A stretch of 64,000 nt of DNA from Xestospongia muta. Its lineage: Eukaryota; Porifera; Demospongiae; Haplosclerida; Petrosiidae. A program made the translations under genes and the position numbers. Numbering within the stretch: the first letter of the stretch is position 1; each line of letters opens with the position of its first letter. Below, in pieces: positions 1,822-45,800 of this stretch. The notes under the pieces were generated by a model, which saw only the letters and a program-made list of their open reading frames with translations, did no database searches and had not been told where the DNA came from. The stretch spans positions 1,201,594 to 1,265,593 of the forward strand of contig OY848919.1 in the NCBI GenBank assembly GCA_963693285.1, read 5' to 3'.

Positions 1822-4800
1822 TTAACAGAGTACTTTCCCATCAAAGACCACACTCAAACTATTATTGTTAACACAAACATTTTGTAATTGTTGTTTACCA
1901 AATTTAGAAATTTTAGGACAGCCATAGAGATGTAGTGCTTTTAATGTTTTAGTGTTAATAATGAGATTAGAGAAATGTGGTATGTCTTTATCAGTAATAT
2001 TATTGTCATTAAACAAGTATAATCTCTTGATTATTTTATTACCAACTACAGCAGTTGTTAATAAGTGGTAAGTATCTGGTACGAGAGGTGAGGAGTGAAG
2101 ATATAGTTCCTCCATTGTTTGGTTATAAGTTAGTACTTGAGTTAGTTGACTGACACAGTTACTATCAAAAGGAGTGTTATATATATCAAGTGCCCTCACT
2201 TGACATTCATTAATATCAGTTAATATTGTAAGTAAACTTTGAGGAGATAATGAGATGAGTTCAATAGTCCATGTTGTGTGTTGTCGTCTCTTTAATTGAC
2301 GTATCACTTCTTTACATTCTGCCACAGTAGATGAAGTAAGTGTAACACTATAACTAGTCCACTTAACACTTCCAGTGTCTCCTATAATAAAACATAAATA
2401 CTATATAATATTTTACACACACAACAATAGCTATACACACACTCTAACATGCTCTACTACGATTGTCGAGGTCTAAAGAAGAAGACGACGCCATTACTAG
2501 TGTTAGGTTACTATAGCAATGATGTACGGAGATGAACGGATTCTACAAAACGGACTTAAATTTACTGAGTGTTATACTAATAATTTACTATATTAGATGA
2601 TCTAAGCCAGGATGGGGATAGCATTGTCTACTATTTAGACGGACACACAAGGTACTGAACTGTCAGATAGACGTCAGTGAAGATGACTCAGTCATACTAC
2701 TATTCAAGATGATTCATAATTAACAAGCAACACTCAAGCATGAATCATCATGATGTCTGGTAACAGTCTTGTGTGCTTATATTAACTTGGTTGACACTTC
2801 TCTTTACTTTACACATGTCATGATCTAATAAAACATTATATTTAATGTTGTGATATGATATCATAATGTAAGTTATGTCATTTATAATGTATTTCAATAT
2901 TTTTGAAACAATAATTATTTGAAATATCCTATCAACGTTAATATTTTGAAGCTGGAATGTGTGTGTAATAATAGTGACATCATTTCTCTATGTCAGTTAA
3001 TGAACATCAGTTAACTCACAGATGTCTTTACAATATTTTCATATCAGCTCAAGATTACTATTCTTCTCTCCATTTTTTGTTTTTCTTATATTTACATCAT
3101 ACATGATAGTACATGTATACATATAGCTGAAAATATTGGTGAGGAATTAATTTAGTAGTTTTGATCATTGCTTAGAATTTGACATTTTTTGATGTTACAC
3201 TTATTTTAACATAATACATTGTAAGCTTTAAATTTTATTCTCTCCAATATTTCCACTATATTCAATACAATACATGTACTATACATTCATATCAGTACAT
3301 GTATGGATGTAGATAATAATATTATTAACTATAAAGGATGATACTGGTACTTTCCTTATGTGAGTGAATTCATGTTTAGCTTGTGTCTTCTTGAACTATG
3401 TGACACAATATAGTCTTCAAATTGTACACTAAAATTCCTTTATCCTGTGGACATCTTTTATAATATCAGTGGTAGTCCTAGATACTGATGTAAGAGTAAC
3501 TATTCCTGTATTACTTGATAATGTGTTTGTTGTTGACTTCTTGATCTCTAGTGATCATGTGACTTATTGTTATTTTATTTGTTGTATCAATTAATGGTAG
3601 ATCATATACAACTATACTTTAGTCTATTTGTTCATCTTGCCAGTAAAAAAAATATCATAACTTTCTAATAACTCAACCAAATTAAAAATTTCAAAGTCAT
3701 TTAGTGGTCTCCTGACGACCCTCCGGTTCTTTTGACATCATTATTAATACGATAATATCCACAAGAACAAATTTAATGTACTTTCCATAAGCAAAACCAT
3801 TGACCACGAGAATGTGATCTCGTGAATATCGTTAACCAATAAAATGGCTGCTGCTCGAAGAGAGAAACCGGTACGGTAAGAAATACATTCTAACGGTAAC
3901 ATCATATAGATATAGGTAAAAGTACTATACTACTGTAGATATAAAGAATGAAGATGAATATAACTATTTTGTATGAGAATAGAAGTATTGCTGAAATCAG
4001 ACATGAATAACAATAAATATTATAAAAGTTATGATAGAGGTAATATATTGTCTAAGAAATCTTGATCAAAGACTTTTAAAACCTCTGTTATGTTGTGCCT
4101 TGGATTGGTACATATGTTTGTCTAGGGTATGTTATTTTTTGTAGTACTTCATCTATTAACTGTCTCTTGTCTTTGTCCATCATGTCATTGTCATTGTTAT
4201 CATCATCATATCATCTTCACTAAGTTCAATTATGAATTATTCTATTGTGTCCTCAAAAAATTTGTCTTTTTCAAAGTGATCATTTTCTATGTCCACAACA
4301 TGTCGACAAAAAATCCTCCACATATCAGTTGTTGTGTATATAACTCTGTCAGGTGTTAGCTGTTCAATTCCTGGTAAGTTGTGTGTCTTATCATGTTTAG
4401 CTACATAGCCTTTCACAGAAGCCCATGCTAACTCTATTGGATTGAGTTCACAATTATGGGACTCCATTTGTGTCAAAATTGGAAAATTTATTTAGCAAAT
4501 AATGAGTATTATAGGTAAATCAATTTTGACACAAATATTAATGGTGCCCCATACACAATGAGCTACTGATAACTTTATAACTGTACATCTGTGTGTATGT
4601 GCTGCTTTCATCAGTAAGGTACAAAGGTCCTCCTGATCTGTGTTGTTTTACTTTCTTTAGTAATGTCTTTAATGTCCTTGTCATCATATTCTATGTTGTG
4701 TTCGGCTAATCATCTTTTAATATTATCTTTGTGTTTGCAGTTGTTGGAGGTTTGTCCTTTTGTTTATGATACGAAGCATTGTCTAAAATTATTACAGATG

Positions 4801-7800
4801 TGAGTGGAATGTTTGGAAGTAACTGTTGTGTAAACCATTCTATAAAGTGTTCTGAGTTAATTTCGTCATGATAGTCTACTGAGTTCATCTTAGATCTAAA
4901 AACCAAGTCTGCATCAGGAACCTAACCCTCCACTCCACCAGGGTCAACAACAATCAATCGATGACCTTTCCCACTTGGCACTTTCTCGTTTACTATTAAC
5001 ATCTACCCAAATATGTTCTTTATAATGATGTGCATTTACCCATATTTCATCAGTATAGATTATTGTCTTGTTGTCATTTCTTAGTTTACATATCATTTGC
5101 AAGTATGAATGTCTTTGTTCCAGTATATTCAATAATGAATTTGTTCTCACAAGAAAAGAAAATCAACTTTATAGACACACACACGTGGTCTTTTACTATA
5201 TGTGATAACTCAGAGAGTAACACCACAAGTATTTAATTTATGATGACGTGGTATGTGTTATGTATACTACCTACACCCACTACTAATTACCAGTGGCAAG
5301 GTGAACAATACAAATAGACTATAGTATATATAGATATATATAGCACTAAATAGTTGAGGTACAGGAATCTCCTCCATTTGTATTTTACAAATTGACTTTA
5401 AAAAATTATACTAACCCAACCATCATACAGTGTATAGTATTGAATTTGAAGTCCTAGTTTCCACATTATACTCAAGCTCTGAAGATAACTTGGACTACAT
5501 TAATTGGTACATGTGTAGGTACTATTATGACAGAGATCATCATAGAGATCCTCTATAGATTACTGAGAAGTATTTGATAATTGAAATCTTTTTATCAACT
5601 TAGCCATTAGTGATGCATCCATTACTCGAGTGCATGTATTAATTTTATCCAATGTTGCGGACAGGTATGAGGATGTAAGCAACTAATGAAATAGACTATG
5701 TCTCCATGAAATAAATTTCACATGCAGTTGTTGTTGTTTGTGAAATTAACTAAACTTATCATGTGTTATAGGAGTGTGCTGTATAACTGTAAGCTAGTAC
5801 ACACTTAAATACAGTTGTTTAAATATTGCTAAAATTATAATGACAGCTTACTTGGTAGTTCTTCATCGTCTGATGATTCCTGTTGGCTGTCCTCCTTATC
5901 TGCATATTTTGATGTTAACTGAGTGATGATTTTATCATTCTCTGTCAATTGAAGAGTTAGCGAACTAATCACCTCCTGTAGTTTTGTAATCTCTTACATT
6001 TACAATACATGTACAATAAATTCATATCATATAGATGTATTGATAATGACTATAAAGAATGATACATTTTCCTTGATATTCCATCTCTAAATCAGTTGAG
6101 TGCTGTACTCAAACACTGAAAGTGTCTTAAAGTAAACTGTCTACTTTTTAAACTTTCCTGTCATCTGATTAGAAGCCATAATTTAATCCACATCAATGTA
6201 CTATTACTATTGATTGATTAATTTGGTCTTTGTACTTATAAATACAATTAGAAAACTATAATATAGTGCCAGCTTTTCAATATCAGATACTCAACAGAAT
6301 ATTGCATGTGACCAACCAATCAAATTGCTCCTAATATCATCAAAAATTACTATATCTTACTTTGACTAGTGATGTCATGATCATCCACTCTGTCATCTGG
6401 TTCTTCTTGAGTTAGTTTGTCATCTGATGATGGCTCTTGTTGGCTAGCTAGTACCTCCTCAAACGTTTGACTTAACTGAGGATCATAACTTTTAATTTGA
6501 TCACGTAGCTGTACCACCTGAGACTGTAGAGCTAAACACATTATCTGATATCATAGAATATCTAGTAATTGTTTACCTTTCATGTTCTCCATTAACTGAC
6601 TAATCTTTTCATCTCTTTCCATTAACTGTAAATTTAGTGACGTTACCTTTTCTTGTAGTATCTCAATCTCTTCTTGTTTGTCTACTAATACTTTATCAGT
6701 AGCTATAGAACATAACCATATATGGTATGTACTACTAACAGTACTATAGCTCACTTTCTTTATATCTGGTTAACTTTTCAATCTCTAACGTCTTTGCTTT
6801 ACTCATTCGGTCTAATAGTTTCAGCTTCTCTGTTTACATTAGGTACATAGTTATATCTCAATTAATATACATGTACCTGATAAAGTGTCAGTTGATGACT
6901 GGTCTTGTTGTTCTCTGTCCATACTGGCATAAACTAATGTTTTAAATAAAGAATAAAATGATCCTTTATATCATACTTATTGTATTAATGTTCACCTTTT
7001 AGAGAAGATTTCAGTTCTGCTATTTCCTTCTCCTTCTCCTTTTGCTGTGATATAACCTTCTCTTCAAGAATTCTAACCTCTTCCATCAGACCTCTTACCT
7101 CCTACGTAATATTAATAACATACATCCAATTTTATTTAATACTACTCATCTCTTACCTTATCTCTTGTACGCTTATCCCATATAATATGGTAGCCAATTA
7201 TTAATTTAAGTAATCCCAGTTTTATTAATAAATTGAGGTTCTTCTCAGCTTCCATTTGTAGAATATCCATTATATGTCGTGGAGCATAGCAAGTCACAAT
7301 GATGGAGTTGCCTTCTTTTACTTCATTAACTAAAACTCTGTCAGCAATATCTCCAAATGTTTTACATAACAGCTCTCTTATTTCGTTGAATGTGCGTTCA
7401 TCTGTCTTCCATTCCAGGACAAACTGAATTGTCTCACATTTGAGAAGAGATGATGGACCTGTCATGAGCTTCTTCTCACACACGTTGAGTTTTACTTCAT
7501 CGCAAAATGTATCGACCGCTGATTTATAAGTTGTGACATGAGCTTTAGCTTCTTCAATCTTGTAATGATTGATTATGCCCTCCAAACATGCAACATTGAT
7601 AATGGTACACTTTTCTTCCACTAAATCCATGACATCATCAAATGATTCAGCTACGGTTAGTCGTGGTTTCAGCTCTCGAAAGCATCTTCGAAGGTACGTT
7701 TTGAACTCTTGCAGTGAAGGTATACTTTTTGCAATGAGAGGAGCAACATTGTCAATAAAATTTCCAAATGTCATTTTCATCTGATCAAATTTGTACTGAT

Positions 7801-8895
7801 AATCAGGCTGAAAATGAACCTCTGTTGCACCTGATGATAATATTGCTAGCTTTAATAATAAAAATTACTTAAATCACTTACTTTGAGTATTTGTTGACAT
7901 AGTGTTCTGTATGGGAGTGGCCAGTGCTGTAACATCTATATATTGAGGTACAGTAATAATATTATAACTTAATAATGTTGTGGTTATTTCAACATTATTG
8001 GAATATTATAGAATATAGGAAATTAACACTTTGTACTTTTTTTATTTAAAAGCTTGCCTTGGAGTCCAAACACATTAATTTTGTGCTAAGTATTAATCCA
8101 TTAATATACAATATGTGATAGTTAAATTGATGTACAGTAAAATATTATAGATCACACTTATACCTGATTGATTTTGAGGTGAACGTTCTTGAGGAAAGTT
8201 TTGGTCTGTATAAATTAAAATATAACAATCACATCACTATATACAGAACTTACCATATTCTTTGAGTATATCTTTTGCTACCAGTACTGTCTCCTTTGAT
8301 TGTAATAAGACAGTACCGAATACTCTTAACTGACCAGGATCTTCAGATACTGTACTAGACAGTGCTCTCAATGGATGATCAGTTAACAAACCTCCTGATC
8401 TTTCCAGTTCTTTGAATGTCTCATTAGAGATGACCTTCTCTGTGTACAACGTCAGAACAAGTTCCACTGAAAGTGCAAGTTGAGAAGAGTGTTTCTGCAG
8501 TATTTGATTGGGTACCTCCTTTTGCACTATATTTGTCATGAGAAAAGTTAATCTAATCTTGGAGCTATAAAATACTCACTTTCTATTAATGTCCTCTTGT
8601 ACTCCTCAGCAATAACATTCTCACCAATGGTTGGCTTTTGTAGTGTTTCAATAACCTCTCTTCTCATAGCTTTTGGCTTGGAACTCAGCCACAATTCAAA
8701 CATCTTTACAGCTTTGACATCACTTTCTTTGTATTGTTGTTCAATACCATCTAGTTTAGTTGCATCTAATTTGAGGAGTACTCCAAACTTGTACCATTTA
8801 GTGTCAATTCTAACGTGTTCACATAACTCATCAAGAGTTGGTTTTCCATTCAAAAACTGGTTGAAGTAGCTGGAGGAAACGGAGGACGAAGCCAT
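1822..8895 (-). CDS. G1: Death / CARD-like / novel module / coiled-coil / LRR protein
   Basis: The gene has about 12 exons. Exon 1 (8580-8895) starts at ATG with MASSSVSS and encodes a Death domain (residues about 10-105). Exon 2 (8254-8526) encodes a second helical domain resembling a CARD. Exons at 8164-8205 and about 7883-7937 are linkers. Exon 5 (7157-7830) carries an alpha/beta module I cannot name. Exons between about 7103 and 6350, plus one near 5848-5990, encode heptad-rich coiled coil. A 3.4 kb intron with a transposon relic follows, then the LRR exon (1822-2381) with about five short repeats and a stop codon. Nearly all junctions are phase 1. No NACHT, transmembrane segment or signal peptide is seen. 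Compared with G3, the small exons around 23.2-23.7 kb are missing here, apparently by a deletion. Known death-fold biology suggests an adaptor or receptor in immunity or apoptosis; that role is inferred. Confidence 0.8.
4129..5240 (-). mobile_element. Dead Tc1/mariner-IS630-like transposase relic in the long G1 intron
   Basis: Minus-strand fragments give a DDE transposase in pieces: IIYTDEIWVN (first catalytic Asp) near 5060, SVIILDNASYH (second Asp) near 4780, and NPIELAWASVKGYV (third acidic site region) near 4400. The pieces are in different frames with stops between, and a MITE splits the gene at 4465-4536, so it is inactive. The same relic sits at the same intron position in G3 (about 20222-21560) and, cut short, in G4 (33357-33600). 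It is absent from G2 and G5, so it entered before the G1/G3/G4 duplications. Confidence 0.75.
4465..4536. mobile_element. Small MITE nested in the transposase relic
   Basis: The element begins with ATTTGTGTCAAAATTGG and ends with the inverse, CAATTTTGACACAAAT, a near-perfect terminal inverted repeat around a short AT-rich centre. It interrupts the transposase between the second and third catalytic motifs. Longer relatives lie at the matching place in G3. Confidence 0.65.
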
Positions 8896-9184
8896 GACCT
8901 TGTAGAGGAATTTGGTGGGTGGGGCTCAATTGACATTGTTCATGACATAATCACTAGTGAGCATGCGCAATTAACTCCACCCTAAATACAGTTTAACGGA
9001 CCATGTACAATAATTATATGCAAAGGAATTTAATATAGTATTATGCAAACTGCAAGCAATATATAAAATGTAAAAAAGACAAATGATAATGTATATTTCT
9101 TGTGGTTTTATTGACATACACATATTGTAACTGACCTAAAGTAATAAAATAATTGTATAATAATATTTCATACAAAATAAATCC

Positions 9185-9660: not shown

Positions 9661-9719
9661 AACATGAATCAACCTATAAGGTAAACTTGTAATATTATAT
9701 ATTATTATATATTGCTGAT

Positions 9720-10403: not shown

Positions 10404-13400
10404 TTAACAGAGTCTATTACCATTTATACACACATCCAAACTTTTATTTTTAGCACAAACATTTTGCATAAAAAACTTAGTAATATTAGGACAGTAAAGA
10501 AACAGAAATTGTAATGTTGTATTAGTAGTAATGAGATTATAGATGTATGGCATGTCATTGTCACTAATGTTATTGTCATTAAACAAATATAATCTCTCAA
10601 GTGTGTTATTATTATTTAGAGCTGTTGTTAGTAAGTGGTAAGTATCTGGTAAAAGAGGTGAGGAAGAAAGATATAAGACATCTATTGTTTTGTTATAAGT
10701 TGCTACTTGTATTAGTTGACTGACACAGTTACTATCAAAATGAGTGTTCACTATATAAAGACTCCTCACTTGACATTCATTAATATAAGTTAATAGTGTT
10801 AATAAACTTTGAGAAGATAATGACCTAAGTTCAATATTCCATGTTGTGTGTTGCCGTCTCTTTAATTGATGTATCACTTCTTTACATTCTGCCACAGTAG
10901 ATGAAGTAAGTATAACACTATCACTGTACCACTTAACACTTCCAGTGTCTCCTATAATAAAACATAGTTACTATATAATATTTTACACAATAGCCATATA
11001 CACACTATAATATGCTTGTATGGCTATTTTCAATGACCTGAGACAGGATGAGAACATGCTAAACCCACTGACACAAGTACAAAGGATACTGACTGACCTA
11101 TTGGATAGTCATCAGCAAAGATGAATCATATACATATTACTGACTAACTATGTTGATATACACGCAAGCACTGTCTTCATATCTTATCTGTTGTGTGTTT
11201 ATAATAATTTCACCTGATAAAGTGTCAGTTGATGATTGATCTTGTCGTTCTTCTCTGTCCATACTGTATGCTAATAATAATAACATATACACATAGAGTT
11301 AATGCTAATCCCTGTAGTTCATTCTTTGTGATATAAGTTGTTATACTCACATAGTTTTTTTGATGGTATTTCATCTTCCAAGTTGTAGTCACTTTTTCGT
11401 TTTATGCCACGACTGGTATTAAAACTTTCCATACTATACATTGGTGCATGTTGGGTAGGTTCCTCCTTTATTTTATAAGGTAATAATTGCTGCATGAAAT
11501 CAACACGCTTGCAAGTTGGATCTTCTTCTGGATCCTTCATAGTCAGTGCTAAATTGAGTGAAATAGTTTTTGTGACATGTATAATTTAAAGGAATGAATA
11601 GAGAGATACATGAAGCAATGGTGTGATTGATGGACAGACAAACAATGTCCTTATGTATGCATATACCTTCTTGTTTAATATGAATCCTTAATGTATTTAC
11701 CTCATCAAACTATTTTAGTTTTATTGTTTGTATTGTTGTATATATATATCACTACATTATACTTTAAGTTACTTACCTAATGGAGTGTTAGTTGATGACT
11801 GGTCTTGTTGTTCTCTGTCCATACTGGTATAAACTAATGTTTTAAATAAAGAATAAAGTGATCCTTTATATCATATTTATTGTATTAATGTTTACCTTTC
11901 AGAGAAGAATTCAGCTCTGTTATTTCTTCATCCTTCTTTCTCTTTAATATAACCTTCTCCTCAAGAGCTCCCACTTTTTCCACTGCAGGGGGACCCCTCA
12001 CCTCCTATATATATTAACATGCACATAAAATTGTCTAGTACTACTATTATTGCTCTTACCTTATCTCTAGTACACATATCCCATATAATATGGTAGCCCA
12101 TAGTTAATTTAAGTAATCCCACTTTTATCAATAGGTCAAGATGTTTCTGAGCTTCCATTTGGAGAATATCCATTATGTGTCGTGGAGCATAGCAGGTTAC
12201 AATGATGGAATTGCCTTTCTTTATCACTCTAACTTGGACTTTCTTAGCCATATCTTGGAAGGCTTTTTGTAGCAGAAGTCTGATTTGGCTAAGACAGTAT
12301 TCATCAGCATCCCACTCCATGACAAACTCAACAGTCTCACATTTGAGATGAGAGGACGAACCTATGAAAAAGTTCTGACTTTCACACACATTGAGCTTGA
12401 CATCTTCACAGAATTTTTCAACAGCTGATTTGTAAGCTGTGATATGAGGTTTGGCATCTTGAATGTCATAGTGATCAATAACAGCCTCTAAGCATGCAAC
12501 ATTGATTATGGTGCATTTTTCTTCCACAATTTCCATGACATCATCAAATGATTTTGCTACTGATAACTGAGGTTTTAGCTCTCGAAAACATCTTTTAAGA
12601 TACTTTTTAAAATCTTTCAGTGAGAAAGAAGACTCCTGCTGGGGAAGAGATGGTTCAGATGAAGGAGATGAATTCATAACAGCAGATTTAATAAGAGGTG
12701 CCACACAATGAACAAGGTTTCCTAATTTTATTCTCATTTGATCAAAATCATATTGAAAAGTTGCTGGAAGATACAGTTCTGTTATAGCACCTAATAGAAG
12801 TATATGGAATTCATTATTTAGGAGTATTGAGAAAACTAACTTTCACTAGAAGAACTCGATGTAGTGTTCAGTGCTGGAGTACCAAGAGCATTGGTGTCTA
12901 TTGATAACATTACAGATAGATATATATGTTAATGATCTAATTAAATTATATACCTGGTTGACTTGGCCATACTGGTACTTGAGGAAAGTTTTCATCTATA
13001 GAAAATTTCAACTCTATGATTCTATGAAGTACAAACTTACTGTATTCTTTGAGTATATCTTGTCCTACTTGTATTGTCTCCTCTGATTGTAACAAGACAG
13101 TAGCGAAAACTCTTAGCTTGTTTGAGTCTTCAGATACTCTACTAGAGAGTGCTCTCAGTGGATCATCAGTTAGTACACTTCCTAATCTCTCCACTTCATC
13201 AAATGTATCCTTAGAGATGACTCCCTCTGTATACAAAATACGAACTATCTTTGCAGGAAGAGTGAGCTGTGAGAGACACTTAGCATGTTTCTGTAGTATT
13301 GAAGTAGCAACCTCTTTTTGAACTATTGTACAAATAAATATGAAGAAATTTAACCAGGCTATCTTAATTTTTAATATACACTCACTTTCTGGTAATGTCT

Positions 13401-13689
13401 CTTTGTATTGTTCAGCAATAGCATTCTCACTAATGGCTGGCTTCTTTAGTGTCTCTATAATCTCTCTTCTTGTAGCATTGGGTTTGCTACTCAGCCATAA
13501 TTCAAACATCTTTAATGATTTGAAATCACTATCTTCATTTAGTGATCTGATATCATTTAACTTCTTGATGTCTAACTTGAGAAGTACACCAAGTTTGTGC
13601 CAGTTAGTACCAACTCTGACATGTTCGTATAACTCATGAACAGTTGGTTTTCCATTCAAAAACTGATCGAAGTACGTAGAGACCGCCAT
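10404..13689 (-). CDS. G2: compact Death / CARD-like / novel module / LRR protein
   Basis: Start at ATG 13689 (MAVSTYFDQFLNGKP). Exon 1 (13386-13689) is the Death domain; exon 2 (13041-13322) is the CARD-like domain. The module exon (about 12060-12790) begins after a Gln-rich linker and contains FKKYLKRCFRELKPQL, the TIINVACLEAVIDHY helix and GNSIIVTCYAPRHI strands. It differs from G1 by a short Ser/Pro/Gln insertion before FSLKDFKKYL. Exons at about 11890-12000, 11780-11825, 11350-11550 and 11215-11265 are linker or coil. The 11350-11550 exon carries KRKSDYNLEDEIPSKK, a bipartite nuclear-localisation pattern not found in the other copies. The LRR exon (10404-10951) is slightly shortened near its end. 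It lacks the long coiled-coil exons and the transposon of G1, G3 and G4. Confidence 0.8.
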
Positions 13690-13993
13690 AGTCACAAAAA
13701 TGCTCAAAGGTCACTCACTATTGAACGCGTAGAACTATATTAACTCATTTAACCTTTTTATTGTGGTTATTATAGTAAAGTCAATTTCAATAGTCCAGCC
13801 AACCTACTAAGATAACACTATTGTATTAGTATACAACAGTAATAATATTTAGTAAAATAAATAAAAGAGACAGCATTAAAAATTAAAAATTATCATCATC
13901 ATCATCATCATCATTATTATTATTATATTAAAATATATTTACATACTTGATAAAAATAATATATATTACAAGTTAACTTCGCCCATACTGTAA
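13690..13993. other. AT-rich spacer with (TCA)n/(TTA)n microsatellite
   Basis: No gene is seen. A trinucleotide run (atc then att) occupies about 13893-13926. The spacer matches 46706-47218 upstream of G5, except that the G5 copy carries a 173-base MITE. Confidence 0.6.
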
Positions 13994-16224: not shown

Positions 16225-16279
16225 CTTAATTAAAGTGAGCGAGCAATTTATATTGCGTGGGTGTATAGCCCTATATGGC

Positions 16280-16545
16280 TGGAGTCTTGAGACATAATTC
16301 GAAGCAACAGAGATCTTATTTGAGTTCTTTAACACATATCTCTCTATATTCCTCCACTAACAAACTGAACTCCATTAGAATATGATGTATCTTCAGGTTC
16401 TGGGATGACTCAACTGATGCTGGTATGTACAATGTATGTATCCATTTAAAGAATCATTGATCCATTTTTACTATAGGGACAATAATAGAATTACAATATT
16501 GAATGTTATAACGATGGATCATTTGTAGTCACTAAGACACAAGTA
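16280..16545 (+). pseudogene. AtuA-like pseudogene fragment (first exon fused to an internal exon)
   Basis: The first part matches the first exon of the AtuA gene at 50866 but has an in-frame stop where the intact copy has the Gly of IRIGCSSG. It then jumps to the intron and exon at about 52045-52150 ([20 protein letters not shown]), so several exons are deleted. It ends abruptly in RFC3 sequence near 16546. Confidence 0.8.
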
Positions 16546-17495: not shown

Positions 17496-18050
17496 TAAGT
17501 TAATAGTTGTAATGTTATCAAGAAATCTTCTGATGTTGTATGGATCAGTACTTTCATGGAATTGTTAAAAGTGAGTGTTCTATTAAATAGAACGTGTTAT
17601 TAAGTATAATATTAATTTGTTAAGTGAACTGTGTGTGTAGGAAATAAGTTTTTAGGTGATTTGACAAATTAATTGGCTTTAATTAATGGATTTTGTATTA
17701 GCAGTAATAATTAGTGGCATTAGACGTAGCTATAATATTTAATTTTATATATCTACTAACTAGAGGCCTATTAATGTACAATTTAGTCCAGTTTGTTTGT
17801 TATAATTGTATTTGTAAATATTAGAAATAACAATATAGAAGCTTTTATTATTAATTAATGTAGGCGTGGTCAATTGTCAAGAGAGAAGTTGAGTTTTTCG
17901 ATAGAAGAAGTGAATTATAAAAATTGTTAACTTTGTTAGAACACAAAGAACTGGAAACTAAAGTATTTAACTAACAATTGACTTATTTGAATTTGAAATA
18001 ATTTATTTTTAGTAAAAAGATATCAGCAATAGTACAAAAATAACTAATAA

Positions 18051-21000: not shown

Positions 21001-21481
21001 TCGGTTAATCATCTTTTAATGTTATCTTTTGTGTTTGCAGTTGTTGGAGGTTTGTCCTTTTGTTTGTGATACGAAGCATTGTCTAAAATTATTACAGATG
21101 TGGGTGGAATGTTTGGAAGTAACTGTTGTGTAAACCATTTTATAAAGTGTTCTGAGTTAATTTCATCATTATAGTCCACTGAGTTCATCTTAGATCTAAA
21201 AACCAAGTCTGTACCAGGAACCTGACCCTCTACTCCACCAGGGTCAACAACAATCAATCGTTGACCTTTCCCAATTGGCACTTCCTCCTTTACTATTAAC
21301 ATCTACCCAAATATGTTCTTTACAGTAATGTACATTTACCCATATTTCATCAGTATAGATTATTGTCTTGTTGTCATTTCTTAATTTACATATCATTTGC
21401 AAGTATGAATGTCTTTGTTCCAGTATATTCAATAATAAATTTGTTCTCACAAGAAAAGAAAATCAACTCTATACACGCATG

Positions 21482-25702: not shown

Positions 25703-25984
25703 GACCTTGCAGAGGAATTTGGTGGGTGGGGCTCAATTGACATTAGTCATAATATAGTCACTAGTGAGCATGCGCAATTGATTCCACCCTAAATGGATTT
25801 AACGGCCACTTACAATAATTCTAAGCTAAAGAACTTAATATTGTATTATGAAAACGTTGCAAACTGCAAGCAATATATAAAATGTAAAAAATGACAAATG
25901 ATAATTTATATATCTTGTGGTTTTATTGACATGCACATACTACAACTGACCTAAAGAAATAAAATAATTGTATAATAATATTAT

Positions 25985-30445: not shown

Positions 30446-33400
30446 TTAACGGAGTATTTCCCCATCAAAGTACACACTCAAACTATCATTGTTAACACAA
30501 ACATTTTGTAATTGTTGTTTAGCAAATTTAGTAATTTTAGGACAGCCAGTGAGATCTAGTACTTCTAATGTTTTATTGTTAATAATGAGATTAGAGAAAT
30601 GTGGTATGTCTTTATCAGTAATATTATTGTCATGCCACAAGTATAATCTCTTGATTATTTTATTACCAGCTACAGCAGTTGTTAATAAGTGGTAAGTATC
30701 TGGTACGAGAGGTGAGGAGATAAGAGATAGTACCTCCATTGTTTGGTTATAAGTTAGTACTTGTGATAGTTGACTGACACAGTTGCTATGAAAGTGAGTG
30801 TTTCTTATATTAAGTCTCCTCACTTGACATCCATTAATATCAGTTAATATTCTAAGTAAACTTTGAGGAGATAATCTGTTGAGTACAATACTCCATGTTG
30901 TGTGTTGTAGTCTCTTTAATTGACGTATCACTTCTTTACATTCCGCCACAGTAGATGAAGTAAGTATAACACTATCACTGTACCACTTAACACTTCCAGT
31001 GTCTCCTATAATAAAACATAGTTACTATATAATATTTTACACACACAACAATAGCTATACACACACTCTAACATGCTCAACTACGATTGTCAAGGCCTAA
31101 CGAAGAAGACGACGCCATTACTATACTCTGTCCGAGTTGAGTTGAGCTACCCAGACATGTAAATAACTTACCTGTTTTGCGTGCTATCAGCATGGAACTT
31201 GCACCAATCCGTTCAGCTTGCAAATGCGCTATATATATATAAAATTTGGCTCTCTAGTGCTACGAGAAAGTAGCAAACTATAAACTCCATACATTTTCAA
31301 TGGCATACTTTAGTCATACCTCAAATTCCACACCTTCGAATAACACTTCTCACCTTGAGAAGTCAACCGTGTGTCACGTGGTAATTCAGTTTTAATTATG
31401 TGAACAGATGTTCTATACAATATTTATTACTATTAAAATAATAATCAGATATTGTCTTTTGCGATTTAAGGCAGCTATAAAGCCACCATGGTTCTGAAAA
31501 GAACCTTTTAACAAACAGTCTCAACTTTCTTTTTCTGTAGCCTCTTGATGCTAGCACATGAAACTCCTGTGGCATCAGCAGTTCTTTAAGAGATCCTTGA
31601 GTATATCGACACCTGTGGATTTCCTCGAAATACTCATAGACATTCGCAACAACCTCCTTTGCATCTTGATGAACACGTGGTGTTTTCGCATGATATTCAC
31701 GTGAAAAAGTAATGAATAAGATTAAAATGTACTTCAGTGTGAAGTAGATAAAGTAGGTGATAAAATACCTCACCTTACATTCCATGCATAAACACCTTTT
31801 TTTTAATGAAGGGCTCAACTCAACTCGGACTTAAATTTACGGAGTGTTATACTAATAATTTACTATATTAGATGATCTAAGCCAGGATTGGGAAAGCATT
31901 ATCTACTATTTAGACGGATACACAAGGTACTGAACTGTCAGATAGACGTCAGTGAAGATGACTCAGTCATATCACTAGTCAAAATGATTCATAATTAACA
32001 AGCAATGCTCAAGCATGAATTATCATGATGTCTGGTAACAGTCTTGTGTGCTTATATTAACTTGGTTGACACTTCTCTTTACTTTACACATGTCATGATC
32101 TAATAAAACATTATATTTAATGTTGTGATATGATATCATAATGTAAGTTATGTCATTTATAATGTATTTCAATATTTTTGAAACAATAATTATAGTGACA
32201 TCATTTCTCTATGTCAGCTAATGAACACCAGTTAACTCACAAATGTCATTACAATATTTTCATATCAGCTCAAGATTACTATTCTTCTCTCCATTTTTTG
32301 TTTTTCTTATATTTTCATCATACATGATAGTGTATACATATAGCTGAAAATATTGATGAGGAATTAATTTAGTATATAGTTTTGATCATTGCTTAGAATT
32401 TGACATCTTTTGATCCTACACTTATTTTAACATAATACATTGTAAGCTTTAAATTTTATTCTCTCCAATATTTTGACTATATTTGTATAGTACATGTACT
32501 ATACTATCATGTCAGTACATGTATGAATGTAAATAATAATATTATTAACTATAAAGCATGATACTGGTACTTTACTTATGTGAGTGAATTCATGTTTAGC
32601 TTATGTCTATGTGACACAATAAAACTTTCAAATTGTACAATCAAATTCCTCCATCCTGTGGACATCTTTTATAATGTCAGTGGTAGTCCTAGGTACTGAT
32701 GTCATGAGTAACTATTCCTACATTATTTGATAATGTGTTTGTTTGTTGACTTCTTGATCTTTAGTCATCATGTGACTTATTGTTATTTTATTTGTTGTAT
32801 CAATTAATGGTAGATCATATACAACTATACTTTAGTCTATTTGTTCACCTTGCCAGTAATAAAAAATTATCATAACTTTCTAATAACTCAAACAAATTAA
32901 AAATTTCAAAGTCAATTAGTGGTCTCCTGACAACCCTCCGGTTCGTTTGACATCATTATTAATATGATAATACCCACAATAACAAATTTAATGTACTTTC
33001 CATAAACAAAGTATAGGAGAGACCATTGAGCACGAGAATGTGATCTCGTGAATTTCGTTAATCAATAAAATGGCTGCTGCTCGAAGAGAGAAACCAGTAC
33101 AGTAAGAAATACATTCTTACGGTAACATCATATAGATATAGGTAAAAGTACTATACTACTGTAGATATAAAGAATGAAGATGAATATAACTATTTTGTAT
33201 GAGAATAGAAGTATTGCTGAAATCAGACTTGAATAACAAAAAGTATTATAAAAGTTATGACAGAGGTAATAATATATTGTCTAAAAAATCTTGATCAAAG
33301 ACTTTAAAAACCTCTGTTATGTTGTGCCTTGGATTGGTACATATGTTTGTCTAGGGTATGTTATTTTTTGTAGTACTTCATATATTAACTGTCTCTTGTC

Positions 33401-36400
33401 TTTGTCCATCATGTCATTGTCATTGTTATCATTATCATACTATCATCTTCACTAAGTTCAATTATGAATTATTCTATTGTGTCCTCAAAAAATTTGTCTT
33501 TTTCAAAGTAATCATTTTCTATGTCCACAACATGTCTACAAAAATACCTCCACATATCAGTTGTTGTGTATGTAACTCTGTCAGGTGTCAGCTGTTCAAT
33601 TCCACATCGTATAGATGTATATATAGTGACTATAAAGATTAAAGAATGATATATTTTCTTTGATATTCCATCTCTAAATCAGTTGAGTGCTGTACTCAAA
33701 CACTGAAAATATCTTGAAGCAAACTGTCCACTTTTTAAACTTTCCTGTCATCTGATTAGAAGCCATAATTTGGTCCACATCAATGTACTATTACTATTGA
33801 TTGATTAATTTGGTCTTTGTACTTATAAATACAATTAGAAAACTATAATATAGTGCCAGCTTTTCAATATCAGATACTCAACAGAATATTGCATGTGACC
33901 AACCAATCAAATTGCTCCTAATATCATTAAAAATTACTATATCTTACTTTGACTGGTGATACCATGATCATCCACTCTGTCATCTGGTTCTTCTTGAGTT
34001 AGTTTGTCATCTGATGGTAGCTCTTGTTGGCTAGCTAGTACCTCCTCAAACTTTTGACTTAACTGAGGATCATAACTTTTAATTTGATCACATAACTGTA
34101 CCTCCTGAGACTGTAGAACTAAACACATTATCTGATATAATAGAATATCTAGTAATTGTTTACCTTTCATGTTCTCCATCAAATGACTAATCTTTTCTTC
34201 TCTCTCCATTAACTGTATAGTTAGTGACGTTATCTTCTCTTGTAGTATCTCAATCTCTTCTTGTTTGTCTACTAATACTTTATCTGTAGCTATAGAACAT
34301 AACCATATATGGTATGTACTACTATTAGTACTATAGCTCACCTTCTTTATGTCTGGTTAACTGCTCTATCTCTAACGTCTTTGCCTTACTCATTCGGTCT
34401 AATAGTTTCAGCTTCTCTGTTTACATTAGGTACATAGTTATATCTCAATTAATGTACATGTACCTGATAAAGTGTCAGTTGTTTGTGGTCCTTCTCTGTC
34501 CATACTGTGTGCTAATAATAATAAAATATACAAATATAGTTATTGCTACTTCCTGCAGTTCATTGTTTTTGATAGAAGGTGTTACACTCACATAATTTCT
34601 TTGATTGTGTATCATCTAGTTTATGAGGCAATAATTGTTGCTTGAAATCAACTTGCTCAAGAGTTGGATCTTCTTGTGGATCCTTCATAGTCAGTGCTAT
34701 ATTGAGTGAAGTAGTTTTATGACACTTATACTTTAAAGGAATGAACAGATGTGTACATGAAGGGATGGATGGATGGATTGGTTAATGGATGGACAAAACA
34801 GACAATGCAATATCCTTACATATCCATATACCTTCTTTATATTTAATGTCTACTTTTAATGTATTTACCTCATCTAACTATTTTAGTTTTATTGTTTGTA
34901 TTGTTCTATATATATATCACTACATTATACTTTAAGTTACTTACCTAATGGAGTGTTAGTTGATGACTGGTCTTGTTGTTCTCTGTCCATACTGGTATAA
35001 ACTAATGTTTTAAATAAAGAATAAAGTGATCCTTTATATCATACTTATTGTATTAATGTTTACCTTTTAGAGAAGATTTCAGCTCTGCTATTTCCTCATC
35101 CTTCTCCTTTTGCTGTGATATAACCTTCTCTTCAAAAATTCTAACTTCTTCCGTCACACCTCTTACCTCCTACGTAATATCAATAACATACATCCAATTT
35201 TATTTAATACTACTCATCTCTTACCTTATCTCTTGTACACTTATCCCATATAATATGGTAGCCAATTATTAATTTAAGTAATCCCAGTTTTATTAATAAA
35301 TCGAGGTTCTTCTCAGCTTCCATTTGTAGAATATCCATTATATGTCGTGGAGCATAGCAAGTCACAATCATGGAGTTGCCTTCTATTACTTCATTAACTA
35401 AAACTCTGTCAGCAATATCTCCAAATGTTTTACATAACAGCTCTCTTATTTCGTTGAATGTGCGTTCATCTGTCTTCCATTCCAGGACAAACTGAATTGT
35501 CTCACGTTTGAGAAGAGATGATGGACCTGTCATGAGCTTGTTCTTACACACGTTGAGTTTTACTTCATCGCAAAATTTATCGACTACTGATTTATAAGTT
35601 GTGACATGAGTTTTAGCTTCTTCAATCTTGTAATGATTGATTATGCCCTCCAAACATGCAACATTGATAATGGTACACTTTTCTTCCACTAAATCCATGA
35701 CATCATCAAATGATTCAGCTACGGTTAGTCGTGGTTTCAGCTCTCGAAAGCATCTTTGAAGGTACATTTTCAGCTCTTGCAGTGAAGGGATACTTTTTGC
35801 AATGAGAGGAGCAACAGTGTCAATAAAATTTCCAAAGGTCACTTTCATCTGATCAAATTTGTACCGATAATCAGGTTGAAAACGAACCTCTGTTGTACCT
35901 GATGATAATATTGCTAGCTTTAATAATAAAAATTACTCAAATCACTTACTTCGAGCATTTGGTGACATAGCGTTCTGCGTAGGAGTGGTCAGTGTTGTAA
36001 CATCTATATATTGAGGAGTAGCAATAATATTATAACTTAATAATATTGTGTACTATTTCAACATTATAGGAATATTATAGAATATAGGAAATTAACAGTT
36101 GGTACTTTTCATTCTAAAAGCTTGCCTTGGAGTCCAAATGCATTAATTTTGTGTTAAGTATTATACCATTAATATACAATATGTGATAGTTAGATTGATG
36201 TACAGTAAAATATTATAGATCACACTTATACCTGATTGATTTTGAAACGAACTTTCTTGAGGAAAGTTTTGGTCTGTATAAATTAAAATATAACAATCAC
36301 ATCACTGTACACAGAACTAATTTACCATATTCTTTGAGTATATCTTTTGCTACCAGTACTGTCTCCTTTGATTGTAATAAGACAGTACCAAATACTCTTA

Positions 36401-36967
36401 ACTGACCAGGATCTTCAGATACTGTACTAGACAGTGCTCTCAATGGGCGATCAGTTAACAAACCTCCTGATCTTTCCAGTTCTTTGAATGTTTCATTAGA
36501 GATGACCTTTTCTGTGTACAACATCTGAACAAGTTCCACTGAAAGTGCAAGTTGAGAAGAGTGTTTCTGTAGTATTTGATTGGGTACCTCCTTTTGCACT
36601 ATATTTGTCATGAGAAAAGTTAGTCTAATCTTGGAGCTATAAAATACTCACTTTCTACTAATGCCTTCTTGTACTCCTCAGCAATAACATTTTCCTCAAT
36701 GGTTGGCTTTTGTAGTGTTTCAATAATCTCTCTTCTCATAGCTTTTGGCTTGGAACTCAGCCACAATTCAAACATCTTTAAAGCTTTAAAACCACTGTCT
36801 TCATTCATCACTCTGATACCATCTAGTTTGGACGTATCTAATTTGAAGAGTACACCAAATGTGTACCATTTAGTACCAATTCTAACGTGTTCACATAACT
36901 CATCAAGAGTTGGTTTTCCGTTCAAAAACTGATTGAAGTAGCTGGAGGAAACGAAGGACGAAGCCAT
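30446..36967 (-). CDS. G4: Death / CARD-like / novel module / coiled-coil / LRR protein
   Basis: Same plan as G1 and G3. Death-domain exon from ATG 36967 (MASSFVSSSYFNQFLNGKP) to about 36652; CARD-like exon about 36325-36598; module exon about 35225-35900; coil exons between about 35170 and 33950 (KQEEIEILQEK heptads, then a Gln/Asp/Glu-rich acidic tail); LRR exon 30446-31005. The last coil exon present in G1 (5848-5990) is missing because a deletion joins about 33601 to sequence matching 6020 of unit 1. Flanking exons are phase 1, so the frame survives. The last intron also carries a TIR transposon (31129-31829). LRR substitutions relative to G1 and G3 again cluster on beta-strands. Confidence 0.8.
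31129..31829 (-). mobile_element. TIR DNA transposon unique to G4 intron
   Basis: Ends are GTCCGAGTTGAGTTGAGC at the left and its exact inverse GCTCAACTCAACTCGGAC at the right. The inside reads on the minus strand as KKRCLCMECK, an intron or insert, then DAKEVVANVYEYFEEIHRCR, followed in another frame by ADATGVSCASIKRLQKKK, a helix-turn-helix like the N-terminus of Tc1/IS630-type transposases. The catalytic domain is missing, so it is a non-autonomous derivative. It is absent from the same place in G1 and G3; bases of the host flank were lost on the left. Confidence 0.75.
33357..33600 (-). mobile_element. Truncated transposase relic in G4 intron
   Basis: Only the 3' part of the Tc1/mariner-like relic remains (matching 4129-4370 in G1). 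The rest was removed with a coil exon by a deletion ending at about 33601. Confidence 0.7.
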
Positions 36968-37264
36968 GACCTTTGCAGAGGAATTTGGGTGGGGCTCAGT
37001 TGACCATTATTCATGAATAGTCACTAGTGAGCATGCGCAATTGACTCCACCCTAAATACAGTTTAACGGCCAAGGTACAATAATTATAGGCAAAAGAATT
37101 TAATATTGTATTATGAAGAAGTTGCAAACTGCAAGCAATATATAAAATGTAAAAATGACAAATGATAATTTATATTTCTTGTGGTTTTATTGACATACAC
37201 ATATTATAACTGACCTAAAGAAATAAAATAATTGTATAATAATATTACATACAAAATAAATTCT

Positions 37265-42811: not shown

Positions 42812-45800
42812 CTAATAACAATAACGGAGTCTGTTACTATTAATCCACAAACTCTTCAAAGTATTATTTTTAACTAAAACATGTTTTAATTGTTGTTTAC
42901 CAAATTCAGTAATATTAGGACAGAGAGTGAGAGATAGTCGTTGTAATGTATTACTGTTCGTGATGAGATGACAGAAATAAGGTATATCTTTATCAGTAAT
43001 GTTATTGTCACTCCACAAGTAAAATCCTTTGATTATTTTATTAGCAGTTATAGCTGTTGTTAGAAACTTGTAAGTATCTGGTACGAGAGGTGAGGAGAGA
43101 AGATGTAGTTCTTCTATTGTCTTGTTACAAGTTACTATTTCTACTAGTTGACTGACACAGTTACTATCAAAATGAGTGTTATGTATAGAAACTTCCCTCA
43201 CTTGACATTCATTAATATCAGTTAATAATATTAGTAACGTTTGAGGAGATAATGAGTTGAGTTCAATACTCCATGTTGTGTGTTGTCGTCTCTTTAATTG
43301 ACGTATCACTTCTTTACATTCTGCCTCAGTAGATGAAGTGAGTGTAACACTATCACTGTCCCACTTAACACTTCCAGTGTTTCCTATAATAAAACATAGT
43401 TACTATATAATATTTTACACACACAACAATAGCTATACACACACTCTCACATGTTCAACTACAATTGTCAAGGCTTATCAATAAAGATCTACTATTGAGA
43501 TGGACACACAAGGTACTGAGCTGTCAGATAGACGTCAGTGAGGATGACTCAGTCATATCACTAGTCAAGATGCAATGGTACCTAGCAACATCATAGCTGG
43601 GCCTAAGCTGGCATAGCATTTATAAATAACTTAGAAACTGTAGCAAGGTTCGGCACTTTAGTGCCTTTCATTTTGTCTCTGTGCTTATGTATACAATTGA
43701 AAATCTATACAATATAATACACTCTTTTAGATATCAGATATTCGACAAAAACTTCACGTGACAAACCAATAAAATTGTTTTTATATAATTTCCTATAAAT
43801 TTCTAGATCTTACTTTGACTAGTGGTATCTTTTGTTTCAAAATCTGATGAAGTTAACTTGGAAGCATCATCCACTCTGTCATCTGGTTCTTCATGAGTTA
43901 GTTTGTCATCTGGTGGTAGCTCTTGGATAGCTGGTACCTCCTCAAACGTTTGACTTAACTGAAGATCATCAACTTGAATCTGATCATGCAAGAGCTCGTG
44001 TACTTCTAGATCATGGAACTGTACCACCTGAGACTGTAGAGCTAAACACATTATCTGATATAATATAATATCTAGTAATTGTTTACCTTTCATGTTCTCC
44101 ATCAACAGACTAGTCTTTTCTTCTCTCTCCATTAACTGTAAAGTTAGTGACGTTATCTCTTCTTGTAGCATCTCAATCTTTTCTTGTTTCTCTACTAATA
44201 CTTTATCAGTAGCTATAGAACATAACCATATATGGTATGTACTACTATCAGTATAATCCCTAACCTTCTTTAAATCTGGTTAAATTCTCAATCTCTAAGG
44301 TCTTTGCTTTACTCATTTTCTCCAATAGCTTCAATTTCTCTGTTTACATTAGGTACATAGTTATATCTCAATTAATGTACATGTACCTGATAAAGTGTCA
44401 GTTGATTGCTGTTCTTCTCTGTCCATACTGTACACTAGTAAAAATAAAATACAGAAATATAGTTATTGGTAGTGCTTGCGATTCATTGTTTGTGATATAA
44501 CTTGTTATACTCATATAGTTTCTTTAATGATGTTTCACCTTCCAAGGTAGGTTCCTCCATTAGTTTATGAGGCAGTGATTGCTGCATGAAACCAACTTGC
44601 TCAAAAGTTGGATCTTCTGCATCCTTCGTGGTTGTTACTAAATTGGGTAAAGTATTTTCTGTGACTCATATAAATTAAAGGAATGAATGGATAGGTACAT
44701 GAAGAGATGATATCTTTACATATACATTATTTAGCCTTTCAATTTGCATTATGTATGTATACCTCAGGTTACATACCTAATGGAGAATCAGTTGATGATT
44801 GGTCTTGTGGTCTTTCTCTGTCCATAATGGTACAAAATAACTCCATACTGGTATAAACTAATTGTGTAATAATAAATAATTATATTATAATTACGTATGA
44901 AGCTAATGCTTACCTTTCAGAGAAGATTTTAGCTCCGTTATTTCCTTGTCCTTCTCCTTTCTCTGTGATATCATGGTTATCACCTTCTCTTCAAGAGCTT
45001 TCACCTCTTCCACTAGACCCCTCACCTCCTACATATATCAACACGCACATAATATTATCTAGTACTACTATCGTTCTCACCTTATCTCTACTACATATAT
45101 CCCATATAATATGGTAGCCCATACTTAATTTAAGTAATCCCAGTTTTATCAATAGGTCAAGATGTTTCTCAGCTTCTATTCGGAGAATATCCATTATATG
45201 TCGTGGAGCATAGCAGGTCACAATGATGGAGTTGCCTTTCTTTATGACCCTAACTTGGACCTTCTTAGCCATATCTTGGAAGGCTTTTTGTAATAGAACT
45301 CTAATTTGGCTAAGACAGTATTCATCAGCTTCCCATTCCATGACAAACTCAACAGTCTCACATTTGAGAAGAGAGGATGAACCTATGAAAAAATTCTGAC
45401 TTTCACACACATTGAGCTTGACCTCTTCACAGAATTTTTCGACAGCTGATTTATAATCTGTGATATGAGGTTTGGCATCTTTAATGTCGTAGTGATTGAT
45501 AACAGCCTCTAAGCAGGCAATATTGATTATGGTACATTTTTCTTCCACAATTTCCATGATATCGTCAAATGATTTTGCTACTGATAATTGAGGTTTTAGC
45601 TCTCGAAAACATCTCTTAAGATACTTTTTGAAATCTTTCAATGAGAAAGAAAACTCCTGCTGGGGAAGAGATGGTTCAGATGAATTCGTAACAGCAGATT
45701 TAATGAGAGGTGCTACATTATGAAAAAGGTTTCCCAATTTTATTCTCATTTGATCAAAATCATATTGAAAAGTTGCTGGAAGATAAAGCTCTGTTATAAC

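What the first reader, a model, noticed from the sequence alone, without database searches (positions are those of the whole stretch)
1822..43383. LRR paralogues differ mainly at the ligand-facing beta-strand positions
Seen directly: the LRR exons of G1 (1822-2381), G3 (18051-18610) and G4 (30446-31005) are identical over runs of 40-90 bases, yet each run ends in a tight cluster of changes, nearly all amino-acid changing. The clusters are the xLxLxx strands: ALDIYNTPF / GLYIRNTNF / RLNIRNTHF; EELYLHSS / GLYLNSS / VLSLISS; RLYLFNDN / RLDLLYDD / RLYLWHDN; ALHLYGCP / VLHLNGCP / VLDLTGCP. G2 and G5 vary at the same sites. Known: in LRR receptors these positions form the concave binding face. Inference: diversifying selection or conversion-driven variation in a recognition gene family.
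Basis: partly seen in the sequence, partly recalled or inferred. Interest (0 to 1): 0.92.

Follow-up and report, generated by a model that had tools for sequence, protein, structure and literature searches.

The report
Hypervariable leucine-rich-repeat receptor gene family
An animal genome, probably a sponge's, carries on the order of a hundred or more copies of a recognition-type gene that are almost identical except for about 20 amino acids lining the predicted binding surface, which selection has scrambled so fast that the family looks like a built-in antibody library.

Summary
The five minus-strand LRR exons belong to a family with 151 genomic matches (lower bound), clustered on C3, C9 and, diverged, C4. 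In 36 C3 copies and 29 further copies, the x codons of xLxLxx strands have dN/dS near 8, against 0.55-0.83 in the rest of the LRR and 0.09-0.22 in the LxL core. Silent changes are not raised at these codons; fourfold third bases there stay nearly fixed, so this is selection, not a simple mutational hot spot. Nine pairs at 0.5-1% noncoding divergence already differ at 12-15 of 20 residues. AlphaFold (pLDDT 93.6) gives an NLR/ribonuclease-inhibitor-type LRR with 15 of the 20 residues in strands and 5 just after one. The LRR exon is also homogenised between genes whose upstream exon has silent divergence near 0.9, so exon-restricted conversion or exchange operates. The gene plan (Death, second exon, TRADD-N-like, coiled coil, LRR; no NACHT found) matches a published sponge expansion; I found no report of the hypervariable face. 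The immune or self/non-self role is inferred. Silent diversity near the variable codons is mildly raised in one group, so some older shuffled variation is possible.

The parts
1822..2381 (-). G1 LRR terminal exon (acceptor to stop); hypervariable strand codons
10404..10951 (-). G2 LRR terminal exon (diverged, non-homogenised relative)
18051..18610 (-). G3 LRR terminal exon; AlphaFold model of this exon's open frame
30446..31005 (-). G4 LRR terminal exon
42812..43383 (-). G5 LRR terminal exon (diverged relative)
25358..25732 (-). G3 exon-1 open frame, Death domain (Pfam PF00531, E 1.8e-5)
25047..25382 (-). G3 second exon open frame (no Pfam match; death-like domain suspected only)
23949..24668 (-). 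G3 TRADD-N-like exon frame (weak Pfam support from relatives, none for this copy)
22667..23095 (-). G3 open frame that reads as coiled coil (by eye; only sub-threshold Pfam matches)
22170..22325 (-). G3 last coiled-coil exon frame; donor CCAA|GTAAGC (phase 1, read in the G1 copy and this frame) matches the phase of the LRR exon acceptor TTATAG|GAGAC
   Evidence: read by eye
8551..8925 (-). G1 Death-domain exon frame (E 2.8e-7)
12949..13710 (-). G2 Death-domain frame (E 1.8e-5)
36623..37006 (-). G4 Death-domain exon frame (E 5.5e-5)
46025..46726 (-). G5 Death-domain frame (E 7.7e-6)
7145..7864 (-). G1 TRADD-N-like exon frame
35213..35932 (-). G4 TRADD-N-like exon frame
11964..12842 (-). G2 TRADD-N-like exon frame
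44994..45857 (-). G5 TRADD-N-like exon frame
17496..18890 (-). G3 part of the homogenised LRR block (about 260 bp before the exon frame, exon, about 550 bp after) shared with most C3 and C9 copies read, mostly at 87-96%; both edges are breaks in G3's own similarity, other copies share more

Best explanation
This is a large germline-encoded repertoire of receptors with the plan Death, small second exon, TRADD-N-like domain, coiled coil, C-terminal LRR. The terminal exon folds as a ribonuclease-inhibitor/NLR-type LRR. Ectopic gene conversion or exon exchange keeps its framework, neighbouring noncoding DNA and silent sites nearly uniform across gene lineages that diverged long ago. About 17-20 codons, at alternate positions of the concave beta-strands, are under amino-acid-level diversifying selection so strong that they are saturated before noncoding DNA diverges by about 1%. 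Shown by computation: the variation pattern, the excess of amino-acid change without silent change, the homogenisation of the LRR exon, and a confident predicted fold. Inferred: the splicing, that the strand residues contact a ligand, that Death/TRADD-N parts signal cell death or inflammation on binding, that ligands are microbial or non-self, and that two haplotypes of one individual differ in repertoire. The likely working mode is a standing library in which each gene carries one random-looking binding face; new duplicates are kept because they recognise something new.
For: Family size: 151 matches at E<=1e-3, with only 150 of 491 candidates scored; a few are halves of one exon. dN/dS at strand x codons 7.98 (36 copies) and 7.68 (29 copies); rest of the LRR 0.55 and 0.83, LxL core 0.22 and 0.09. 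Silent third-base differences at these codons 0.034 vs 0.036 in framework (A), 0.015 vs 0.021 (B). Fourfold third bases, where every change is silent: 47 of 1714 pairs (0.027) at variable codons vs 0.041 in framework (A); 37 of 1030 (0.036) vs 0.027 (B). Third base of split codons, minimal events: variable codons 4 silent, 26 changing; framework 24 and 11; Fisher p 1.1e-5. Variable-residue difference flat at 0.65-0.68 from 0.5-1% to over 10% noncoding divergence. Pairs with no silent codon difference in the exon (15 of 630 in A, 25 of 351 in B) differ at a mean of 12.8 and 11.7 of 17 residues. AlphaFold pLDDT 93.6, strands at 43-48, 67-73, 97-101, 125-129, 154-158; fold matches NLRP3, NLRP14, NLRP9, NLRP1, ribonuclease inhibitor. 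LRR dS 0.00-0.11 between group A/B genes whose TRADD-N-like exon dS is 0.8-1.2. Variable residues are 19.9% Tyr, 10.5% Arg, 6.2% Trp, each of Cys, Pro, Gln and Met at or below 0.5%.
Against: No expression, ligand or phenotype data; splicing of the LRR exon to the upstream exons is inferred. In the 8 near-allelic protein pairs only 9 of 39 differences lie at the 20 codons, a weak excess over about 12% expected. One pair at 1.5-2% noncoding divergence differs at only 2 of 20 codons, and two near-identical pairs at none. Framework amino-acid differences average 6 even in pairs without silent difference. In group B, silent third-base differences are higher in LxL core codons (0.033) and next to variable codons (0.024) than 4 or more codons away (0.017); not so in A (0.028, 0.030, 0.035). 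The split-codon control confounds silent with transition: against an unbiased 1:2 expectation it gives p 0.012 pooled, 0.003 in B, 0.34 in A alone. The LD test has limited power, and group B shows linkage between neighbouring variable sites (5 of 12 at p<0.05) and shared strand words (14 vs 0.6 expected for neighbouring strands), partly from near-duplicates. In C4 the columns chosen as variable also have raised silent difference (pS 0.269 vs 0.082; pN 0.444 vs 0.058), so the silent control is not clean there. The TRADD-N-like model had no significant fold match.
Confidence: 0.76

Rival explanations
1. Old variants shuffled: the variable codons are ancient, kept by balancing selection, while gene conversion homogenises everything else and re-assorts them among copies.
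For: Conversion or exon exchange is clearly active. Silent and noncoding sites show linkage only to about 180 bp in group A. In group A whole strand words are shared about as often as independent assortment gives, except strand 2 (0.029 vs 0.0115). In group B silent third-base differences rise towards the variable codons (0.017 far, 0.024 adjacent, 0.033 core).
Against: Old variants would drag along much silent variation within 1-6 bases. LxL core dS is below the rest in A (0.049 vs 0.061) and only slightly above in B (0.037 vs 0.032), against dN of about 0.57 at the variable codons. Third bases inside the variable codons are not clearly raised. In A, variable sites 1-2 codons apart show no linkage (mean z -0.07, 0 of 12 at p<0.05), whereas silent sites 1-15 bp apart do (z 3.68), though that test is weakly powered.
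Confidence: 0.18
2. A targeted germline hypermutation or templated mutator (AID-like, or like a diversity-generating retroelement) writes new bases into the strand codons, with selection only filtering.
For: The apparent rate is extreme: 9 of 9 pairs at 0.5-1% noncoding divergence differ at 12-15 of 20 codons, and the transition/transversion ratio of 0.51 at these codons is what fully randomised bases give.
Against: Fourfold third bases of the same codons are nearly fixed (0.027 and 0.036 of pairs differ), where an untargeted-by-phase mutator would randomise them. Third-base A is kept at NNA sites (36 of 36 at codons 46 and 125 in group A), against an adenine-specific mutator. The LxL codons in between change little.
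Confidence: 0.07
3. Relaxed constraint or pseudogene drift after duplication.
For: Many copies; some broken copies exist (one search lists matches with internal stops).
Against: dN far exceeds dS and noncoding divergence at specific codons while neighbouring codons are conserved. The 90 LRR exons read gave open frames, but they were taken from the top of the match list, and two matches in that range were skipped, one with an internal stop and one partial.
Confidence: 0.02
4. Same anatomy, different purpose: self/non-self (allorecognition) or gamete recognition rather than pathogen or symbiont sensing.
For: Repertoires that appear to differ between haplotypes; sponges discriminate self from nonself with remarkable specificity (abstract of PMC5450542, start seen in the search listing).
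Against: Nothing ties these genes to fusion or rejection; 'death domain', 'leucine-rich', 'LRR', 'NLR' and 'ankyrin' do not occur in the main text of the Amphimedon grafting transcriptome paper. Cell location was not tested.
Confidence: 0.25

Closest known systems
NCOA6-clade TRADD-N expansion of the sponge Amphimedon (PMC8195603; section 10 and passages read)
   Same: 1-3 Death-like domains, then TRADD-N, then a variable fast-evolving C-terminus, most often ankyrin repeats or SH3 plus LRRs; 357 proteins; ankyrin versions lie beside the LRR genes here.
   Different: No SH3 or NACHT in the 13 non-LRR frames of G1-G5 scanned; frames that read as coiled coil precede the LRR. The paper's main text has no occurrence of 'positive selection', 'hypervariab' or 'concave', and its section 10 does not mention exon-level homogenisation.
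Plant NLR clusters (RPP8, PMC6771003 passages; hvNLRs, PMC8226289 abstract and outline)
   Same: Selection on exposed LRR residues, exchange between paralogues, high allelic diversity.
   Different: Plant NLRs carry a nucleotide-binding domain; here Death/TRADD-N-like parts. The framework here is far more uniform relative to the binding face.
Lamprey variable lymphocyte receptors (recalled, no call)
   Same: Diversity at concave LRR strand positions over a constant framework.
   Different: VLRs are assembled somatically from cassettes; here each gene carries a complete LRR exon in the assembled genome.
Animal NLRs, including sponge NLRs (PMC12909245 passages; fold matches NLRP3/NLRP14/NLRP1)
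   Same: RI-type LRR as C-terminal sensor, Death domain at the N-terminus in some.
   Different: No NACHT domain found in the frames scanned.

Membership tests
NCOA6-clade Death/TRADD-N receptor expansion (sponge type) | N-terminal Death-like domain | tested here: met
   Pfam Death PF00531 above the curated cut-off in 5 of 5 genes (G1; G2-G5)
NCOA6-clade Death/TRADD-N receptor expansion (sponge type) | TRADD-N domain of NCOA6 type | tested here: inconclusive
   NCOA6_TRADD-N PF13820 is the family matched by most relatives, 13 of 62, best E only 0.013; FcoT-like thioesterase PF10862 is matched by 9 with a better best E (9.2e-5); the G3 copy itself matches none. Fold search without significant match
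NCOA6-clade Death/TRADD-N receptor expansion (sponge type) | variable C-terminus with LRRs or ankyrins, many lineage-specific copies | tested here: met
NLR (NACHT-LRR) | NACHT/NB domain between effector and LRR | tested here: not met
   no NACHT in 13 non-LRR frames of G1-G5 (3, 10); not every small frame between exons was scanned
RI/NLR-type LRR fold | alpha/beta horseshoe, about 28-residue repeats | tested here: met
   AlphaFold pLDDT 93.6, profile match to ribonuclease inhibitors E 1.3e-18, Foldseek NLRP/RI; Pfam LRR models only sub-threshold or partial
Diversity-generating retroelement target | adenine-specific mutation of variable codons | tested here: not met
   third-base A invariant at codons 46 and 125 in group A while bases 1-2 vary
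VLR-type somatic assembly | somatic joining of LRR cassettes | not testable with these tools
   needs RNA and tissue DNA; each copy read here is a complete LRR exon

The most novel reading that the evidence does not exclude
An early-branching animal keeps a germline 'antibody-like library': on the order of a hundred or more LRR receptors share one interchangeable framework exon, and their binding-face codons turn over faster than the surrounding DNA can accumulate about 1% change. The two haplotypes of one individual carry largely different specificities, making it a candidate individuality (allorecognition) and immune repertoire, with exon-restricted conversion spreading the framework and possibly an added diversity-making mechanism.
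Probability: 0.3. Interest if true: 0.95.

Novelty: new variant of a known kind. Interest (0 to 1): 0.85.

Why it matters
It would show an anticipatory, germline-encoded recognition repertoire with a near-random binding face over a frozen scaffold in what is probably a non-bilaterian animal. It is also a favourable natural case for separating amino-acid-level selection from mutation and conversion. It would make an old question, how sponges tell self from non-self and sense a vast microbiota without adaptive immunity, testable gene by gene.

Tried and rejected
Mobile cassette: the sharp edges of the LRR block proved to be breaks in the reference copy's own similarity, so a transposable cassette with fixed ends was dropped.

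DGR-like adenine mutagenesis, three-position hypermutation and relaxed constraint were rejected as main explanations.

LD argument: a simulation along a silent-site tree gave mean z only 0.1-0.6 at every rate, so the linkage equilibrium of group A is supporting evidence only; the simulation cannot estimate the rate either, because its state frequencies are the observed ones.

Allelic comparison: only proteins from unnamed ENA contigs were available; near-alleles gave 9 of 39 differences at the 20 codons. That these contigs include the other haplotype of the same individual is inferred from 42 exact matches against 40 with more than 15 differences (91 of the 120 listed of 210 hits, compared with my 90 exons). 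Three of the 40 unmatched proteins were checked against the whole genome: P0024, P0008 and P0023, best 87, 89 and 85% (only the best 150 candidates are scored).

Fold search of the TRADD-N-like model gave nothing significant. PAML/FUBAR not run. Rows dropped: L050, L062, L066 from group B as outliers; L056 and L058 as near-duplicates; L069-L090 not used in the group statistics. Group B holds three C3 copies (L049, L054, L060). The first run of the statistics script stopped with a division error: the last two group-B rows and the G1/G3/G4 part were not printed; the latter was redone.

Full report
WHAT IS THERE. The window (C3:1201594-1265593 of a 158 Mb, 28-contig genome) holds five minus-strand genes whose last exon encodes an LRR domain in one open frame. 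Upstream on the same strand each gene has a frame with a Death domain above Pfam's cut-off (G1; G2-G5) and a TRADD-N-like frame of 240-293 residues. Frames that read as coiled coil lie between them and the LRR exon; I listed these for G3. The last coiled-coil exon ends in phase 1 at a good donor and the LRR exon begins in the matching phase (read by eye). That the LRR exon is spliced to these exons is inferred, not shown by RNA. No NACHT or SH3 was found in the 13 non-LRR frames scanned.

FAMILY SIZE. Searching the genome with the G3 exon gave 151 matches at E<=1e-3 with only 150 of 491 candidates scored, so this is a lower bound, although a few matches are halves of one exon. Copies cluster at C3 0.27-2.1 Mb, C9 5.8-6.7 Mb and, more diverged, C4 7.4-10.4 Mb. 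I read 90 of these exons and 16 of the C4 type. The TRADD-N-like exon gave 153 matches.

OBSERVATION TEST. Group A is 36 C3 copies, group B 29 copies, mainly C9. Over all pairs (NG86), the 20 strand x codons have pS 0.069, pN 0.401, dN/dS 7.98 in A, and 0.072, 0.404, 7.68 in B. The remaining LRR codons have dN/dS 0.55 and 0.83, the LxL core 0.22 and 0.09. The 20 most variable LRR sites overlap the strand list at 17 of 20 in both groups. The 16 C4 exons, 38-45% identical to G3, repeat the positional pattern: variable columns fall at x positions of xLxLx in successive strands. Those columns were chosen by their variability, and their silent difference is raised too (pS 0.269 vs 0.082 elsewhere), so C4 replicates the places but not the silent control. 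Additional variable positions lie at both ends of the exon (codons 12-19 and 182-191).

SELECTION, NOT A SIMPLE MUTATIONAL HOT SPOT. Silent third-base differences between copies with the same residue and same first two bases are 137 of 4004 at variable codons and 1947 of 54679 in the framework (A), and 39 of 2674 against 759 of 35781 (B). In fourfold boxes, where every third-base change is silent, 47 of 1714 pairs (0.027) and 37 of 1030 (0.036) differ at variable codons, against 0.041 and 0.027 in the framework; a mutator blind to codon phase would randomise them. In split boxes the minimal numbers of third-base changes at variable codons are 4 silent and 12 changing (A), 0 and 14 (B, 27 copies); in the framework 18 and 7, 6 and 4 (pooled Fisher p 1.1e-5). 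That contrast is confounded with transition/transversion; against an unbiased 1:2 expectation it is p 0.012 pooled, 0.003 in B and 0.34 in A.

SPEED. The share of strand residues that differ is flat, 0.65-0.68, across noncoding-divergence bins from 0.5-1% (9 pairs, all of group B) to over 10%. Two pairs, at 0 and 0.28%, are identical at all 20, and the lowest value otherwise is 2 of 20 at 1.5-2% (pairs overlap and are not independent). Pairs with no silent difference in the exon, 15 of 630 in A and 25 of 351 in B, differ at a mean of 12.8 and 11.7 of 17 residues (range 10-17 and 2-16), while framework differences rise with silent differences from about 6 to 12 in A. In A, neighbouring variable sites show no linkage (0 of 12 at p<0.05) though silent sites within 15 bp do (62% at p<0.05); B shows some (5 of 12). 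A simulation shows that this test has little power, so I lean on the divergence comparison. Distance at variable sites does not track silent distance (Mantel r -0.09, p 0.82 in A; 0.056, p 0.23 in B).

HOW OLD ARE THE VARIANTS. If they were old and merely shuffled, silent sites a few bases away should be very diverse. In A they are not (third-base differences: core 0.028, adjacent 0.030, 4 or more codons away 0.035). In B there is a mild gradient (0.033, 0.024, 0.017). Recent selected change is therefore favoured, with some older shuffled variation possible in B.

EXON-RESTRICTED HOMOGENISATION. For 17 genes I compared the TRADD-N-like exon with the LRR exon of the same gene, paired by position and strand. 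Between different TRADD-N lineages dS is about 0.8-1.2, yet the LRR exons of the same group A/B pairs have dS 0.00-0.11. G2 and G5 escaped: their LRR dS against the others is 0.12-0.30. Gene conversion or exon exchange confined to the LRR end explains this. Nearly identical genes (TRADD-N-like dS 0.01-0.03, 6 pairs) still have strand dN of 0.38-0.77.

STRUCTURE. AlphaFold2 on the G3 frame with an alignment of 43 sequences gave pLDDT 93.6 and pTM 0.89, with strands at 43-48, 67-73, 97-101, 125-129 and 154-158 and helices between. Fifteen of the 20 codons lie in these strands and 5 directly after one. Foldseek lists NLRP3, NLRP14, NLRP9, NLRP1 and ribonuclease inhibitor, and the profile matches ribonuclease inhibitors (1.3e-18). 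Alternation of variable x with L/I puts the variable residues on the exposed concave side; that step uses established LRR geometry, not a computed surface. Over 17 sites and 65 copies, variable residues are 19.9% Tyr, 10.5% Arg, 8.5% Glu, 8.0% Ser, with Cys, Pro, Gln and Met each at or below 0.5%.

HAPLOTYPES. Of 120 listed relatives among 210 hits in a collection of predicted proteins, 91 have a best match of 80% or more among my 90 exons: 42 are identical apart from the start residue, 7 differ by 1-7, 2 by 8-15 and 40 by more than 15. Half of the 40 (20) sit on four contigs (412931, 345629, 82883, 103207), two of which also hold identical copies. Three of the 40 were checked against the whole genome and have nothing above 87, 89 and 85%. 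The simplest reading is a second haplotype with a largely different repertoire; this is inference. Differences in 8 near-allelic pairs are only mildly concentrated at the strand codons (9 of 39), a result against a very fast process.

KNOWN CONTEXT. PMC8195603 (section 10 and passages read) describes 357 Amphimedon proteins with Death-like domains, TRADD-N and an often fast-evolving C-terminus, commonly ankyrins or SH3 plus LRRs. The window's genes and their ankyrin neighbours fit that plan. NCOA6_TRADD-N is the Pfam family matched by most relatives (13 of 62), but weakly (best E 0.013), and an unrelated family (FcoT, 9 of 62) has a better single score, so the TRADD-N label is likely, not proven. 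Paper searches (listings with abstract starts seen) showed no report of hypervariable LRR faces in sponges; the library lacks most subscription papers. The nearest parallel is plant NLR clusters (PMC6771003 passages; PMC8226289 abstract and outline).

VERDICT. Filed as a new variant of a known kind: a known type of gene expansion with a diversification of the binding face that I found nowhere reported, unusually extreme against a uniform framework.

Noticed in passing
window 58679-61978 and 54912-56468 (-): Neighbouring Death plus ankyrin genes have tandem ankyrin repeats, some near-identical, that vary mainly at a few fixed positions (the residue before TAL and some helix positions), reminiscent of designed ankyrin binders (recalled); possibly a parallel diversification inside one gene.
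   Followed up: partly
window 20337-21462, also about 4240-4491: Fragments that look like a DDE-type transposase (by eye) lie in the last intron of G3 and G1, between the coiled-coil frames and the LRR exon.
   Followed up: no
window 27156-27419 and 38429-38731 (+): Fragments resembling a replication factor C subunit (by eye) recur between the genes.
   Followed up: no
window 15910-16356, 48029-48374, 50482-50906 (-): Recurrent fragments that read like a sugar-transporter gene (by eye).
   Followed up: no
G000 C4 7.4-10.4 Mb (L104-L119): A separate, diverged cluster with a longer LRR exon (frame about 269 residues) shows the same positional pattern of variability.
   Followed up: partly
L056/L061, L058/L059, L073/L074, L088/L089: Near-identical copies tens to hundreds of kb apart on the same contig: very recent duplicates or assembly duplicates.
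   Followed up: no
P0046 (ENA protein): A copy with an in-frame extra strand segment of about 14 residues, suggesting unequal exchange within the LRR exon.
   Followed up: no
P0004 and other relatives: Many relatives carry Pfam accession PF27087, which did not appear in the Pfam scans made here.
   Followed up: no
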